Position numbers and translations under genes: made by a program
From: Paragyromitra xinjiangensis
Taxonomy: Eukaryota; Ascomycota; Pezizomycetes; Pezizales; Discinaceae
Assembly: GCA_038503065.1 (NCBI GenBank)
Contig: JBCAMK010000002.1
Location: 1,798,001 to 1,862,000 of the forward strand
Length of the DNA: 64,000 nt
Direction: 5' to 3'
The notes under the pieces: generated by a model
What the model was told of the DNA's origin: nothing
The model's database searches: none
Seen by the model: the letters and a program-made list of their open reading frames with translations, nothing else
Shown: in pieces, positions 56,284 through 64,000 of the stretch
Numbering within the stretch: position 1 is the stretch's first letter
Layout of the letters: every line of letters starts with the position of its first letter

Positions 56284-57435
56284 CTACCACCCTCTCCTCC
56301 CTAAGAACGCCTTCCTCCTATTCGTGTTAAGCCTGATCTTCATTGGAAGCTTCCTTCTCTTGCTTGCCCTCTTCTTCTCATCCCAGGGTACTCCGAATTC
56401 CTCAAACATTTTTCGCGAGCAGGAATGCCGAGGGTCCTCCGTCCGTGCCCAGGCCTCGAAAAAAAGGTGTTCTGTTTTCACCGCCGTCCCGACAAACTTC
56501 ACCACACGGTCAATCCAATCCACAGCCAGGTCGCCATCAACAGCAGCATCACCCTGCCTGAACTCCACCGTCCCGTGAGTCTCGACCGCATTCAAGTTGT
56601 ACTTGAAAAACTTGTGCGGCCCGATGAGATCAAGGAGATCCCGCCTCGTGGTAGCTTCTTCAAGGAGCCTGATAGCCTCCAGTTTGGTGTAACCCGCCAG
56701 ATTGTCGTTGCAGCGGTTGCTCGAAATACACCAGTTGTGGTGGGGTTTTCGATGGGCAGGGTGGTATCTGTCCATTGAGGACTCGAAAATGACGATGGCC
56801 TTAGCAATTCTCTTAAGGCTTTTGAGACTCCAACCTTCTCCACACCCGATATGAACGTGGAGCCCAGTTGTATGATTGAAACGGCAATCGAAGGTCCCTT
56901 TGAGATGTTCGACGACAGTAGGGATGACCCATTTCCATGACCTGTTCCTCAAAATCGGTGTACAAAGCTCAACAGCGTACCCAGTTATTTCCTTCCCCTG
57001 TGCTTCATCATAAAGGATGACTTCGACAGATTTTTCGTCCGTCACGATGAAGCGTTTGCGGTTAGGCTGATTCCCTGTGACCTGGGTCCAAACGTCGGCT
57101 TTGATAGAGACCCCATCGGGGTAAAGGGTATTCAGTCCATCCTTGACAATTTCAAAGATGGTATTATGGTTCAGGGCGTTTGGAGGAAGATTAACTATGA
57201 CCATTTCTAACTCCATTCCAATAGATATGCTATCCTCAAGATTGTTGGTTTGGGCTGTATTGAAGGTGGAGAAGTGGGAATCTGGAAGCCGGAGAAGGAA
57301 TGTTTCAGAGAGCTCTTTGCGGAGGATCTGAGGCACAAAATGGGGCAAAAGGGACGGGTTGAAAGGACGCCGGTTTTCATTGTGGATGATCATTCTCCTC
57401 GCTTGCTTCCGATTCCAGTCCTTTGCAAAGCACAA
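56284..57435 (-). CDS. putative amidoligase (ATP-dependent COOH-NH2 ligase fold)
   Basis: Single exon, 383 residues. Matches the pattern of the putative amidoligase enzyme family, related in fold to glutamate-cysteine ligase and glutamine synthetase and predicted to form amide bonds on peptides or small molecules. Motifs: GMELEM at 73-78 (metal/ATP Glu pair), YAVELCTP at 153-160, TTGLHVHIG at 189-197, FFKYNLNAV at 276-284 and the substrate/metal motif GTVEFRQGDAAVD at 288-300. All expected acidic and His residues are present, so it looks active. The C-terminus is Lys/Arg-rich. Start: the first Met (57435) is used; a later Met at residue 15 is possible. No biosynthetic partner gene sits beside it. 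The intact transposon is inserted about 500 bases upstream of its start. Substrate unknown. Confidence 0.8.
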   Translation of the reverse strand: MCFAKDWNRKQARRMIIHNENRRPFNPSLLPHFVPQILRKELSETFLLRLPDSHFSTFNTAQTNNLEDSISIGMELEMVIVNLPPNALNHNTIFEIVKDGLNTLYPDGVSIKADVWTQVTGNQPNRKRFIVTDEKSVEVILYDEAQGKEITGYAVELCTPILRNRSWKWVIPTVVEHLKGTFDCRFNHTTGLHVHIGCGEGWSLKSLKRIAKAIVIFESSMDRYHPAHRKPHHNWCISSNRCNDNLAGYTKLEAIRLLEEATTRRDLLDLIGPHKFFKYNLNAVETHGTVEFRQGDAAVDGDLAVDWIDRVVKFVGTAVKTEHLFFEAWARTEDPRHSCSRKMFEEFGVPWDEKKRASKRRKLPMKIRLNTNRRKAFLGRRGW

Positions 57436-57930
57436 GTGATCCGAGGGGAGTTGGAGAGGGACGTCGAGATTGCTGGCGAGAAAGACAGGAAGCGGCAGCT
57501 TTTGAGCAAATTGGCAGACGGAAGATGTTGCTTTTACAGCACTTTAAATGGGCTTGCCTTCTGCGTGTGGGCGGGCGAAAACGAAGATAGTATGGAGGGC
57601 GACGGAAGCAAGCTTCTTTGGTGAGACGGAAAGGACGGTAGACAAGGAGTTTCGATAAAGATTAGGCCGAGATGTATCATAAGCCGCGAAGAGTGGTCTT
57701 TCACAGGGCTTTGAAGTCCTAAGAGAGTTGCTGTTCACTGAGGGGTGAGCTGCGTGGGGTCATGCGGCATCACTCGGCGATCGGGAACCAAAGTATGCAG
57801 ATCGGTGTCCCGCAGAAACGGCGCCAATCTCTTACCGAAGGTAGATTACATTTGTCTATTCATGAAAACCCTATAGAAATTTTGCAGACAAAAATATAGG
57901 CCTAAAACTCTCCAAATCACCTGTCTGACC
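57436..57930. other. amidoligase upstream region
   Basis: About 500 bases between the amidoligase start and the transposon. The last six bases (CTGACC, 57925-57930) are the left copy of the target-site duplication. No other feature. Confidence 0.55.
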
Positions 57931-58052
57931 TACGGGGGCACGTAGCTACCAAAGTCTAATCTGCGATTTGGCAGCAACCGAGGCGCAACGCAGCAACCAC
58001 AACTACGCACCCACAAATAAAGAGATGTATGAAAATAATTTCGCTTTACTAG
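57931..58052. repeat. left terminal inverted repeat of the transposon
   Basis: 122 bp, starts TACGGGGGCACGTAGCTACC. Inverted match to 60467-60594. It ends in a shared block containing CGCTTTACTAG. Confidence 0.9.
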
Positions 58053-58554
58053 CTGTCTTAGGGAATAGATTATTTATATATAGATGAAAAAATTCCACAT
58101 ATGTTCTATTTATCTGCCTGGTCATCCTGTAGTCCCCTAATTGCACCAGCACTACCTGCTGCTAGTCAACTTGACTGCATAAACTAGAGCTAAAAACCCT
58201 GCATGCCTAGCATAATGCAACACCAATGCATTACTAGTAGATAAATGTGCACGATAAGAGTAAAGCTAGAATACAACAATAGGTGTCCTTATACTAAAAA
58301 GATAGGGTACAAGTGGGTATCCACGGTAGTTGACTACTAAACAGCGAACAACAGATACTATAACAGCATCACATCTTATATTCTTCTCCCAACACCTTTG
58401 CTATTTTCTCGTACCTTGCCACCTCATCTGTTACCTCATCTGTTACCTCATTACCTGCCCTCGCTACCTGCCCTCGCTACCTATCTACCTCGCTTCCTAC
58501 TTATTTCACCAAAAATCACTCGATTTATCATCAGATCTATCTTCGCAACACAAC

Positions 58555-60372
58555 ATGTCAAAATTCCATGTTTCCAAACATATTCGTCAGCACAAATACT
58601 TGATATACAGTCATTACATTGAGGAGAATAAAACTATTCAAGAGACTTTAAATATGTTACAGTTGCTGGGACTGAAGTGTTCTCGTGCTACTTTAATGAA
58701 TAGAATGAAAGAATGGGGTTTTACCAAAAATAAGCAATCAGAGGATACACCATCACTACGAGTAGAGTTGGCATACTTATTTTGGGCAAGATGTTTGAAT
58801 GATACAAAGATTTTAAGGGTAAATATCATGATAATTAAACTTATTGATTATCAATGGAATAGAGTTAATATCATTTAGATTTTACAAAGCCATGGATATC
58901 AAATAGAACAACGTCGTTTGGTACTTATTCGGAAATCTATGGGGATGTTTAGACAGCAATCTTCAGAGAATATCAATGAAGAAGCTAATCGGAAGCTTCA
59001 AAAAGTAATTGAAGCAGAATTAGAAAAAGGAAATATTACACTATCTGGTAGACGAGCTGTATGGGTTCATTTACGAAACATGGGAGTTCTAGCATCACAG
59101 TAAGTTTTTTATTTCAATGATTTTAAGTATCAATATTAACTTAAATTAGTGAGCGCATCAGAAGAGCCTTGAAAGTTGTGGACCCAATGGGAGTTGAGAA
59201 TCGTTGGAAAGGAGTTAATCGACATCATACACAGTTCACATGTCCTGGTCCCAATTGGTGTTGGTCTATCGATGGTCATCTCAAACTACAAATGTTTGGA
59301 ATTGAGATATATGCAGCCATTGATGCCTATTCTCGCTACATAACATGGTTTTATTGTGGAGTATCTGCAAAAACTGGTATCAGTGTTTTGAGTCAGTTTT
59401 TAGAAGTAGCGGAGGTTCAGAATTGTATACCTCTTCATATACGAGCAGATAGAGGTACTGAAACTATGATGATTGCTGAATCATTTTGGAGCCTTCATCA
59501 AGTAGAAAGTCCTGATGTGACTTTCCCAGAGGTATTTTGGTATGGAACTTCTACACGAAATGTCAGAATTGAGAGCTGGTGGGGGCAGTTAACTAAAGGA
59601 GCAACAATTGAATGGAAGGTAAGATTGTCACACTCTGCGATTAGAAGAAATAGTTTATCTAATAAATATATAGAAGCATTTTCGAAAGCTGCAACAGGAC
59701 AATCTTTTTCATGAGGATAGTATGGAAGATACTATCAGTCTTTTATACACATATCTTCCTCTATTACGAGCAAAATTGCATATCTTTGTTGAGAGATGGA
59801 ACAACCATAAAATCAGAAAGCAAAGCAATCGACCAAATCTTCCAACTGGTGAACCATTCTACAACTACAGTTTCCCTCCTGACAACATATCAGATTATGG
59901 TCAACCACCGTCATTGGAAAGAATTAGTGAAATTAAGGCACAAAAGTTGCAAAATATAGATACTGGAGAGTTATATGGTATGTATCTAACACTTACTCAA
60001 AAAATATAATTTACTGATGTTAAAGATCATAATATATACCTACCAGATGCTACAATGGCTTACTGTCATGCTTTACTGGTTAAAGCTGGCTTTCCTATTA
60101 ATATTAGTTATGAAGATTGTATGCCCGATGGTCAGAAATCTCATTTTGCTATGTATTGTTTTTTGAGAATTCATGTGCGAAGACATGTCAGTAAAGGAAA
60201 TCAAAATCCTGTACTTTCGCTTCTTCCGAAACCCAAAGAACACAAACCTAGTGTTGGGAAAAGAAAGAGACAGCAATCAATTGTAGAGGTCGAGGCAGAG
60301 TTTTATGGGGAAGAAGAAGGTGATGTAACAACCGATGAAAGTGGGGCAGAGAGGGATTCTGATAGTGAATAA
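58555..60372 (+). CDS. integrase-type (DDE) transposase, 527 residues
   Basis: Moves the surrounding element. Five exons: 58555-58818, 58879-59099, 59150-59618, 59674-59977 and 60047-60372; introns are 50-69 nt with matching phases. The N-terminus (about 1-85) is a helix-turn-helix-like DNA-binding region of the kind seen in fungal Clr5-type proteins (ETLNMLQLLGLKCSRATLMNRM then KEWGFTKN). The catalytic core spans about 190-330: WSIDGHLKL (first Asp), ADRGTET (second Asp) and RIESWW (Glu), the D-D-E triad of rve integrases. It is followed by a helical region with WNNHKIRKQSNRPN. The C-terminus is basic then acidic (GKRKRQQ, then EEEGD) and ends with DSDSE. No internal stop remains after splicing. 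Codon use is A/T-rich, unlike the flanking genes. Confidence 0.85.
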
Positions 60373-60466
60373 GGCTCAAGTTTTGGTAGAATAGGATGAC
60401 CTATAATATATTAAGTCTTTATGTGAGATATTTCTCTAGATACAATTAATCTATTTCTTGAAGCCT

Positions 60467-60594
60467 CTAGTAAAGCGAAATTATTTTCATACATCTCTTT
60501 ATTTGTGGGCGCGCAGTTGTGGTTGCTGCGCTGCGCTGAGAGCTCGGTTGCTGCCAAATCGCAGATTAGACTTTGGTAGCTACGTGCCCCCGTA
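60467..60594. repeat. right terminal inverted repeat of the transposon
   Basis: 128 bp, ends TAGCTACGTGCCCCCGTA. It is six bases longer than the left arm because of one indel in the GC-rich middle. It lies 94 bases after the transposase stop. Confidence 0.9.
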
Positions 60595-60600
60595 CTGACC

Positions 60601-61439: not shown

Positions 61440-64000
61440 CTAATTGCAAAGAGCGACCAGGTTATCATAGCCACGGATCAGGCTCTGATCCTGCTTGTGA
61501 AGGTACTGTACTAACTCGGTGAGATGCTGGCGAGTCTCCGGGGTCAGCTGTTCCTCTGGTGGTGAAAGTACAGAAGCAATGATAGGCACGAATTGTGCGG
61601 TCAAACCACCAACAGTTTGATTCCTGTCCAGGTCTGTAATGCGAAATAAATCGCGTGAGTCACAAGTCATTGTTTAAAAAAGTGTTGCAAGTGCCACTTA
61701 CAAAGTTTGACAAGCATGGTATAAATCGGCTCATTCTCGTCATAATCCTCCTTCAACGGAAGTACACTAGCAATTGCTGGAAGAACATCACCTAGAGGCA
61801 CATTGTTGGGATGAGCCATGATCATCCTTGCAACACATCCGCAAGCATTATCGAGCATCCTGTGGCTCTGGTCTTGCAAGAGTGGCTCCAATTTGCGAAG
61901 AATCGTGCTATAGTTGTTGATAACCGTTTGGTGATCCTGTGACTTAAGGCAAAGTAATCCCACGGCATATGCAGAATTTGACTTCGTTTCCGGATCCTCA
62001 TCAGAGAGTCTGTGCAAGAGGATTTTCATCAATTGCTATAATTTGGCGATTAGCAAGTTCTTATCTATCACAAGTGTTCGTAAATGGGGAGGTAATCACT
62101 GACATCCGTTTTGGCGGTGCATCCGCCTTCCATGTACTTAATGCAGTCCGCAATCACACCAACACTAGTCGACCGCTCTAACGCCTCCGAGGACGAAGAA
62201 AATTTGATCAAATGACTCCCAACTATTTCCCACATCTCCCCAAACTGCTGGCCAAGGGCCATGGCCAGGCCAAGGATCACATCCATAGTCGTATCAATCA
62301 AATGCCAGTCATATTCCGAGGATTCTTCGAGTTCCGGCATATCTTCATCTTCGTCATCATCAAGTTGGCAAGGGTGCTGTTTCTTGAGAATGAGGACAAG
62401 CTGGGTGGCGAGCTCAAGGATGTTTGCCGGGTCGACGAGGAAAGCAGGGCCGCAGATTTTGAGAGTCTCGGCGATGTTGCGGCAGATGTCGGTGACAGTG
62501 CTCCTAGAAAATTTCCGTTAACAAAGACTTCATAAAAATGCAAGTCCACCAAAATAAATAAGAGCAAAGAAAAGGGGATTAGAGTCAGAAACAGAATCGC
62601 GTTCGCAGCACTTGCTCTATGAGCATCTAAGTGAGCTGGGTATAACGAGTAGTGTTCATCATTCCACCCCTTCCCAAACAGATTCGAGGAATAAAATACG
62701 ACAATGACAAAAGGCGGATGTGGCAGAAATACTTGCCTATCAGTCTCATTCTTCCAATTAACCAGTGTGCAATTAATCACGACAGTTCCCAGATTCTGCA
62801 ATTCTGGAGACGGCTGCACCTTCAACGGCAGACCTGGCTGCCACTTGGCCATACCTTTACCTTCCAAAACTTGCCAGAGCGTAGCATAGGCTCTCCATAG
62901 TGTACTGATACTCGCCTTTCGAACGCCTTCGTAAGGATGCTGGGCCTTCTCGGCAAGAAGCTCGACGGTCTTCTCGAGATATTGCAGATATCCCTGTCTG
63001 CAGTGACTCAAGACATCTCCAATGACCTCAGCAGCGACTTCTTTCTCCAAAGCCACAGCACTCACAGCAGTAAGTTCGTCCCAAAGAGCTTCATCGTCTT
63101 CATCGTCTTCGACATCAATATCAGTGGGTTGAATCTCGGCTTGAATTCCTGGGCCAAGAGAGACCCTTTGAGTGCCCTCGGCACCAACGCTCGTGATATT
63201 TCCCTGAACAAGCTCCTCGATGTCTGCATCGATATCCGTCTCGGTCTGCTCCAGACTAGAGAAAAGAGCTTGAGTAACAGTCGGGAGGAAAGTAGAGAAA
63301 TCCTCGCCATAAACTTTGGCCATTGTTGCAAAGAACATGAAACTAGTTTCTCTCAAACGCGGATGTCCGAGGTTTAATGCATCTTCGGCAGATTGCATCA
63401 GCGGTTTCACATATGGTGTGAATGCTTGCATGCCAACAGATTCCGCAATAGCAGCCATGGCGTCAACAACAACCCCTCTAAGATCAAGTTCTTCCTCGGA
63501 GTCCTTTACTGAAATGTAGGGAAACAGGGCATTCATCGTGAGCTGGAAGTACTCGGTGAAACTATCCTTCGCTGCCATAGCAGTGGAACCGATACCACCA
63601 ACAGCTGCAGCCTTGAGTTTAAGATCATCTCTCTCAAACATGATAAAAAGCTTAGGCATAATAGTAGGAAGGTAAGTTGTGACATCGGATTGCTCGATTC
63701 CAACAAGCACGGCATCGATGGCGTTACAAGCTGCCTTCCAGATATCTAAGCCATCGCTAGAATCAAGCATGGCAATGAGGGCAGGGATCAATTGAGCATG
63801 TTCCTTGCCCATATCCTCAGCTAGATCATCTGCTAATTGAGCGATGGTATGTAGCGCCGCTTGCCGCACCCTAGGCTCGGGGTCGGTCAAAAGCTGGAGA
63901 ACAATAGGAAAGATAGATTTGATCTGAGTAGCGATAAAATCTGGAGCTCCCTCAACACACATTCCCAAGGCCAAAACGGCTGCCTTCCTATGGTCTGGGT
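61440..64000 (-). CDS. KAP123: importin beta-4 (Kap123-type karyopherin), C-terminal part, runs off the right edge
   Basis: Nuclear import receptor, mainly for ribosomal proteins and histones in the family. Built of HEAT repeats. Exons visible (minus): 62737 to beyond 64000, 62104-62503, 61702-62035 and 61440-61633. About 730 codons are in the window; the N-terminal third or so is missing. HEAT helices are seen throughout, for example DPEPRVRQAALHTIAQLADDL, LDIWKAACNAIDAV and HPRLRETSFMFFATMAKVYG, then the acidic loop DVEDDEDDEALWDE, LSDEDPETKSNSAYAVGLL and a C-terminus ending NLVALCN. The first visible intron has a GC donor (AG|GCAAGT at 62736-62735) with acceptor TTCTAG, giving DRSTVTDICRN. 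Junction phases all agree. Confidence 0.92.

What the first reader, a model, noticed from the sequence alone, without database searches (positions are those of the whole stretch)
57925..60600. Complete, apparently recent integrase-type DNA transposon with long inverted repeats and 6-bp target duplication
Every part needed for transposition is visible: 122/128-bp inverted repeats, an identical flanking CTGACC, a spliced 527-codon transposase with an Asp-Asp-Glu integrase core and a helix-turn-helix-like N-terminus, and no lesions. Long inverted repeats with an rve-type core and five short introns do not fit a common fungal superfamily (Tc1/mariner, hAT, MULE, piggyBac), so this may be a little-described family.
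Basis: partly seen in the sequence, partly recalled or inferred. Interest (0 to 1): 0.75.

Follow-up and report, generated by a model that had tools for sequence, protein, structure and literature searches.

The report
Intact IS3EU transposon in a fungus
This is a complete jumping gene of a known but rarely described kind (IS3EU, an integrase-like DNA transposon) in a fungal genome, probably a morel, with moved, broken and cargo-carrying relatives in the same genome; it is a good example rather than a new kind of element.

Summary
The element is real: window 57931-60594, 2664 bp, TACGGGGG...CCCCCGTA inverted repeats (52 bp perfect, 122/128 bp in all) flanked by CTGACC. One spliced gene encodes a 527-aa DDE transposase; it has four introns, not five. 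It is not an undescribed superfamily: ends of the form TAYGG..CCRTA, a 6-bp target duplication, no HHCC finger and an IS3/IS481-like core are published marks of IS3EU. A tree against named IS3EU proteins could not be made. The genome holds six close copies (94-99% over aligned columns) at other sites with their own duplications (two only after undoing an inversion). The transposase is under purifying selection (dN/dS about 0.1 against a second intact copy). Four copies share two stop codons and a probable solo LTR in intron 2 yet sit at four targets, so were probably moved in trans; two of them, on contig C4, have exchanged flanks, as after an inversion. Three larger relatives (7-13 kb) carry further genes of unknown function. 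The N-terminus is a Clr5 domain, named after a fission-yeast silencing factor; my searches found no paper linking it to integrase-type transposases. Recent insertion is plausible but unproven.

The parts
57925..57930 (.). left target-site duplication CTGACC
57931..58052 (.). left terminal inverted repeat, 122 bp, begins TACGGGGGCACG; outer 52 bp identical to the right TIR
58555..58818 (+). transposase exon 1 (Clr5 domain, residues 11-58)
58819..58878 (+). intron 1 (60 nt, GTAAAT..TTAG)
58879..59099 (+). transposase exon 2
59100..59149 (+). intron 2 (50 nt); in four other copies a 536-bp TG..CA insert with a 5-bp duplication (TATCA, equivalent to window 59128-59132) sits here
59150..59618 (+). 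transposase exon 3 (most of the rva_4 integrase core; D203, D262, E303)
59619..59673 (+). intron 3 (55 nt)
59674..59977 (+). transposase exon 4
59978..60046 (+). intron 4 (69 nt)
60047..60372 (+). transposase exon 5 with stop; acidic tail
60467..60594 (.). right terminal inverted repeat, 128 bp, ends CCCCCGTA
60595..60600 (.). right target-site duplication CTGACC

Best explanation
An intact, probably self-sufficient DNA transposon of the IS3EU kind. Its single spliced transposase probably binds the long inverted repeats through the N-terminal Clr5/helix-turn-helix region, cuts at the TA ends with an RNase H-like DDE core, and joins the ends to target DNA 6 bp apart, giving the 6-bp duplication. 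Shown: the anatomy, several copies at different sites with their own duplications, purifying selection on the transposase, and dispersal to four sites of a sublineage that shares a broken transposase gene. Inferred: TIR binding by the Clr5 region, excision (cut-and-paste), trans-mobilisation as the way the broken copies spread, and present-day activity.
For: Ends, TIRs, TSD and intact frame. Pfam rva_4 integrase core E 7e-31 and Clr5 E 7e-7. NCBIfam matches at E up to 1 are only IS3 (1.7e-6) and IS481 (9e-5). Six other close copies, 94-99% over aligned columns. Their TSDs: GACTTT, GATAGC, GGTTAG, a 7-bp match CCCCGTG, and TCGGAG and CGTATG once the C4 inversion is undone. dN 0.020, dS 0.205 against intact copy C9. 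Published IS3EU marks: TA..TA ends, TSD usually 6 bp, no HHCC, first D at 100-300; fungal TAYGG..CCRTA, TIR >30 bp, 6-bp TSD. Model of homologue P0002 (pLDDT 83): three helices at residues 10-52, where Clr5 lies, and an RNase H-like core; best solved-structure matches are TnsB and retroviral integrases, with IstA and MuA further down.
Against: No named IS3EU protein could be compared. The NCBIfam matches lie far under the curated cut-offs. The core tree used few references with long branches; the rva_4 group has 93/97 support in the cleaned tree. One copy shows 7 rather than 6 matching bases. No empty site, excision footprint or expression was seen.
Confidence: 0.9

Rival explanations
1. A new superfamily of integrase-type transposons, distinct from IS3EU, that shares its ends and TSD by descent from a common IS3/IS481-like ancestor.
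For: No named IS3EU sequence could be compared; the Clr5 N-terminus is not mentioned in the IS3EU passages that I read.
Against: Every published mark of IS3EU that I could test is met, including the fungal end motif. Rva_4 proteins with and without a Clr5 match form one group (99/99, 93/97), which includes one from Tuber indicum, a species from which an IS3EU family is reported.
Confidence: 0.06
2. A Ginger1/Ginger2, Polinton/Maverick or LTR-retrotransposon relative.
For: rve-type core; Polinton also gives 6-bp TSDs.
Against: No HHCC by pattern search; rve scores only 19 bits against 108 for rva_4; the TSD is not 4-5 bp; one gene in 2.7 kb; three LTR integrases of the same genome form a separate group. 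Ginger and Polinton cores themselves were not compared.
Confidence: 0.02
3. A domesticated host gene that only looks like a transposon.
For: Intact frame under purifying selection.
Against: TIRs and TSD surround it; six further close copies lie at other sites with their own TSDs.
Confidence: 0.02

Closest known systems
IS3EU superfamily, fungal members (Repbase; PMC10045372 and PMC12730594: passages, and section 3.3 of the first)
   Same: TAYGG..CCRTA ends, long TIRs, 6-bp TSD, IS3/IS481-like DDE core, no HHCC
   Different: The window element has only a transposase gene; the TET-positive fungal IS3EU families also carry a TET/JBP and an alpha-kinase gene. A Clr5 head is not mentioned in the passages read.
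GingerRoot (Selaginella; grouped with IS3EU at 99% bootstrap in PMC10045372)
   Same: 6-bp TSD, mostly TA..TA ends
   Different: Plant host; no sequence compared here
Styx of Zymoseptoria (PMC10853768, passages)
   Same: IS3EU-like DDE transposase, 6-bp TSDs, fungal
   Different: 36-bp TIRs and four coding sequences; no sequence compared here
Prokaryotic IS3 and IS481
   Same: core matches both NCBIfam models
   Different: Scores far under the curated cut-offs; TG..CA ends in those families, here TA..TA; introns

Membership tests
IS3EU | TA..TA termini; in the fungal families TAYGG..CCRTA | tested here: met
   TACGG..CCGTA in 7 of 7 close copies, and in the two large relatives whose both ends I read; criterion
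IS3EU | 6-bp target-site duplication | tested here: met
   6 of 7 copies match over exactly 6 bp (two of these only after undoing the C4 inversion), 1 of 7 over 7 bp; of 3 large relatives 2 were read on both sides, both 6 bp
IS3EU | TIRs longer than 30 bp (fungal families) | tested here: met
   52 bp perfect, 122/128 bp in all
IS3EU | no HHCC motif before the core | tested here: met
   one spacing pattern, searched over the 527 aa, finds none
IS3EU | first catalytic D 100-300 residues from the N-terminus | tested here: met
   D203; criterion
IS3EU | core groups with IS3EU/GingerRoot transposases | tested here: inconclusive
   Only rva_4 proteins, two IS3, two IS481, one IS30 and the genome's LTR integrases were available; rva_4 group 99/99 with 32 rows, 93/97 after leaving out 3 rows
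Ginger1/Ginger2 | 4 or 4-5 bp TSD; HHCC (Ginger1) | tested here: not met
   6 bp, no HHCC; criteria
IS481EU | TNT..AYA or TGT..ACA ends, TSDs of about 4, 15 or 25 bp | tested here: not met
   TAC..GTA ends, 6 bp; criteria
Polinton/Maverick | large self-synthesising element with DNA polymerase B (recalled) | tested here: not met
   2664 bp with one gene

The most novel reading that the evidence does not exclude
The Clr5 domain, known from the fission-yeast heterochromatin silencing factor Clr5 and present in fungal proteins of unclear role, is originally the DNA-binding head of IS3EU transposases; free-standing Clr5 proteins would then be domesticated transposon heads, some of which turned to silencing. 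In this genome 16 of 27 Clr5 matches lie within 3 kb of an integrase-core match and 11 do not. The direction of descent was not tested.
Probability: 0.3. Interest if true: 0.6.

Novelty: new member of a known kind. Interest (0 to 1): 0.3.

Why it matters
It gives a complete, intact IS3EU element with a compared set of sister copies in one genome, including broken copies that apparently moved in trans and a probable copy-mediated inversion, so end recognition, trans-mobilisation and rearrangement can be studied on natural examples. The Clr5 head ties a silencing-factor domain to a transposase, which makes the origin of Clr5 proteins testable.

Tried and rejected
Empty sites: flanks of the window copy and joined flanks of C13, C9 and C14 are single-copy, so there is no paralogous empty site for these four; flanks of C21, C4a and C4b were not searched. 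Plasmid tblastn with the core gave 4 records at E 1-8, of no weight. Solved-structure sequence search with the alignment found 4 sequences, all RpoN, at E 0.018 or worse. The first core tree held two LTR rows that were read out of frame (L056, L059) and a very long IS30 row; a further LTR locus (L060) had no HHCC and was never used. The tree was rebuilt without L056, L059 and IS30; support for the rva_4 group fell from 99/99 to 93/97, and IS3 became weak (74/13). The cargo-gene model came out at pLDDT 50.6 and was not used further. A database name 'GIY-YIG homing endonuclease' on one cargo homologue was not backed by Pfam. Considered and rejected from general knowledge: Tc1/mariner, hAT, MULE, piggyBac (core and TSD do not fit).

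Full report
The observation. The element runs from 57931 to 60594 (2664 bp). It begins TACGGGGGCACG and ends CGTGCCCCCGTA; the outer 52 bp of the two ends are perfectly complementary and the repeat extends to 122 bp (left) and 128 bp (right) with a 6-bp indel and three substitutions. CTGACC stands immediately outside both ends. One gene on the + strand, 58555-60372, is open over 527 codons when four short introns of 60, 50, 55 and 69 nt are removed. The catalytic triad is D203, D262, E303, with 40 residues between the second D and the E.

The gene model holds up against other copies. Against the C9 copy there are 82 coding differences, 11, 16 and 55 at codon positions 1, 2 and 3 (p 6e-10); 54 codons differ silently and 22 with an amino-acid change; dN 0.020, dS 0.205. 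C9 has no exon indel and is itself open over 527 codons. The four GT..AG pairs are kept in 6 of 7 copies, as aligned with inserts dropped; in C14 the donor of intron 2 is changed.

What the protein is. Pfam gives rva_4 (integrase core) at residues 191-371, E 7e-31, Clr5 at 11-58, E 7e-7, and rve only at 19 bits, under its cut-off. NCBIfam gives only IS3 (1.7e-6) and IS481 (9e-5), both far under their curated cut-offs. Of 70 homologues found, 15 carry both Clr5 and rva_4 among their precomputed domains. The best is a Morchella importuna protein (72% over 71% of the query), so the host is probably a morel or close kin, an inference from this hit and a genome of 48.2 Mb. A model of the homologue P0002 (mean pLDDT 83) has three helices at residues 10-52, further helices, then the RNase H-like core; its best solved-structure matches are TnsB and retroviral integrases, E 6.5e-5 and weaker, with IstA and MuA at about 2e-3, all with low overall TM-scores. 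No HHCC pattern was found.

Copies in the genome. A DNA search gave 47 matching places, which include seven close copies and more distant ones. Close copies: the window (C2); C13, 98.7% identical, with several small exon indels, TSD GACTTT; C9, 93.9%, intact, TSD GATAGC; C14, 95.0%, TSD CCCCGTG (7 matching bases); C21, 95.5%, TSD GGTTAG; and an inverted pair on C4, 96.3 and 96.2%. C4a, C4b, C14 and C21 share a TG..CA insert (536 bp in C4b) with the 5-bp duplication TATCA in intron 2, and stop codons at 371 and 432. A 532-bp piece of the insert has 32 further matches in the genome, 22 of them 366 bp or longer, with four same-strand pairs 2.1-2.2 kb apart, as LTRs of a short element would be; so it is read as a solo LTR. 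Because the four copies stand at four different target sites, the composite moved after it had acquired the LTR, and most simply after its transposase was broken, with an intact copy supplying the enzyme. This last step is inference.

The C4 pair. Read on the + strand the order is TCGGAG [a] CATACG ... CTCCGA [b] CGTATG. Turning the 5.6-kb interval round restores TCGGAG..TCGGAG and CGTATG..CGTATG, so recombination between the two inverted copies has most likely inverted the interval. An assembly error has not been excluded.

Relatives. The core family has 48 matches, which fall into 28 places by my clustering. A related TIR (72% over 149 bp) marks one end of two larger elements and is found at both ends of a third; with shorter matches at the other ends they are C21:143245-151978 (8.7 kb, TSD CTGCCC), C11:1930961-1938211 (7.25 kb, TSD ATTTAG) and C9:102057-115190 (13.1 kb, not read on both sides). 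Each holds a transposase relative; in C9 the match begins at exon 3, about 20 bp after an LTR of the same family as above, and exons 1-2 were not found in the stretch fetched. One further reading frame is shared by all three and has 19 homologues, the named ones in Choiromyces and Maublancomyces; another is shared by C21 and C11. The C21 frames have no Pfam match at E up to 0.1.

Comparison with what is known. IS3EU is described as having TA..TA ends, TSDs usually of 6 bp, no HHCC motif and the first D 100-300 residues in (PMC10045372, passages and section 3.3 read). Fungal IS3EU families have TIRs over 30 bp and TAYGG..CCRTA ends (PMC12730594, passages read). All of these are met. IS3EU includes cargo-carrying fungal families, among them one from Tuber indicum; a Tuber indicum rva_4 protein lies in the same group as the window protein, though I cannot show that it is the published family. 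The core tree puts the rva_4 proteins together (99/99, and 93/97 after removing three bad rows), apart from IS3, IS481 and the genome's LTR integrases, with few references and long branches. A tree against Ginger, Maverick and named IS3EU proteins was not possible.

What is new. The family in this fungus was not found in print: a search for papers holding both Morchella and IS3EU gave one, which names Morchella once and, in the passages read, reports IS3EU with a TET gene among Ascomycota only from Tuber indicum and Helitrons from Morchellaceae. The Clr5 head is the most interesting detail. A search for papers holding both Clr5 and 'integrase core' gave none; two searches with looser terms listed no paper holding Clr5 (listed titles only); Clr5 with 'transpos' gave 33, of which 15 were listed and three were opened at their Clr5 passages, none linking the two. 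[quoted passage not shown] Of 27 Clr5 matches in the genome, 16 lie within 3 kb of an rva_4 match and 11 do not.

Verdict. A well-preserved new family of a known superfamily.

Noticed in passing
G000 C4:133017-136183 and C4:141802-144969 (L011, L012): Two inverted copies have exchanged target-site flanks, as expected after an inversion of the 5.6 kb between them.
   Followed up: partly
C4a, C4b, C14 and C21 copies, position equivalent to window 59128-59132: A TG..CA insert (536 bp in C4b) with 5-bp duplication, read as a solo LTR, sits in intron 2 of four copies that stand at different target sites.
   Followed up: yes
G000 C21:143245-151978 (L068), C11:1930961-1938211 (L076), C9:102057-115190 (partly L069, L020): Larger relatives (7-13 kb) with IS3EU-type ends; 6-bp TSDs in the two that were read on both sides. 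Cargo frames without Pfam match; named homologues of one are in Choiromyces and Maublancomyces.
   Followed up: partly
L020 about 897-1366 (G000 C9:103896-104365): In the largest relative an LTR of the same family (90% identical) ends about 20 bp before the exon-3 match of the transposase, and exons 1-2 were not found in the fetched stretch; possibly a deletion between two LTRs.
   Followed up: partly
G000 C12:1594691-1622337: Five of the 11 Clr5 matches without an integrase core nearby cluster here.
   Followed up: no
L014 (G000 C21), insert of about 2.2 kb in the close copy: A further element with inverted ends, possibly with a TA target duplication, has gone into exon 3 of the C21 copy.
   Followed up: no
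window 56287-57543 (-) and 62071-62517 (-): Neighbours of the insertion: a putative amidoligase frame (PF12224, E 3e-12) on the left and a frame with a weak importin match (E 0.07, under its cut-off) on the right; the element lies between them.
   Followed up: partly
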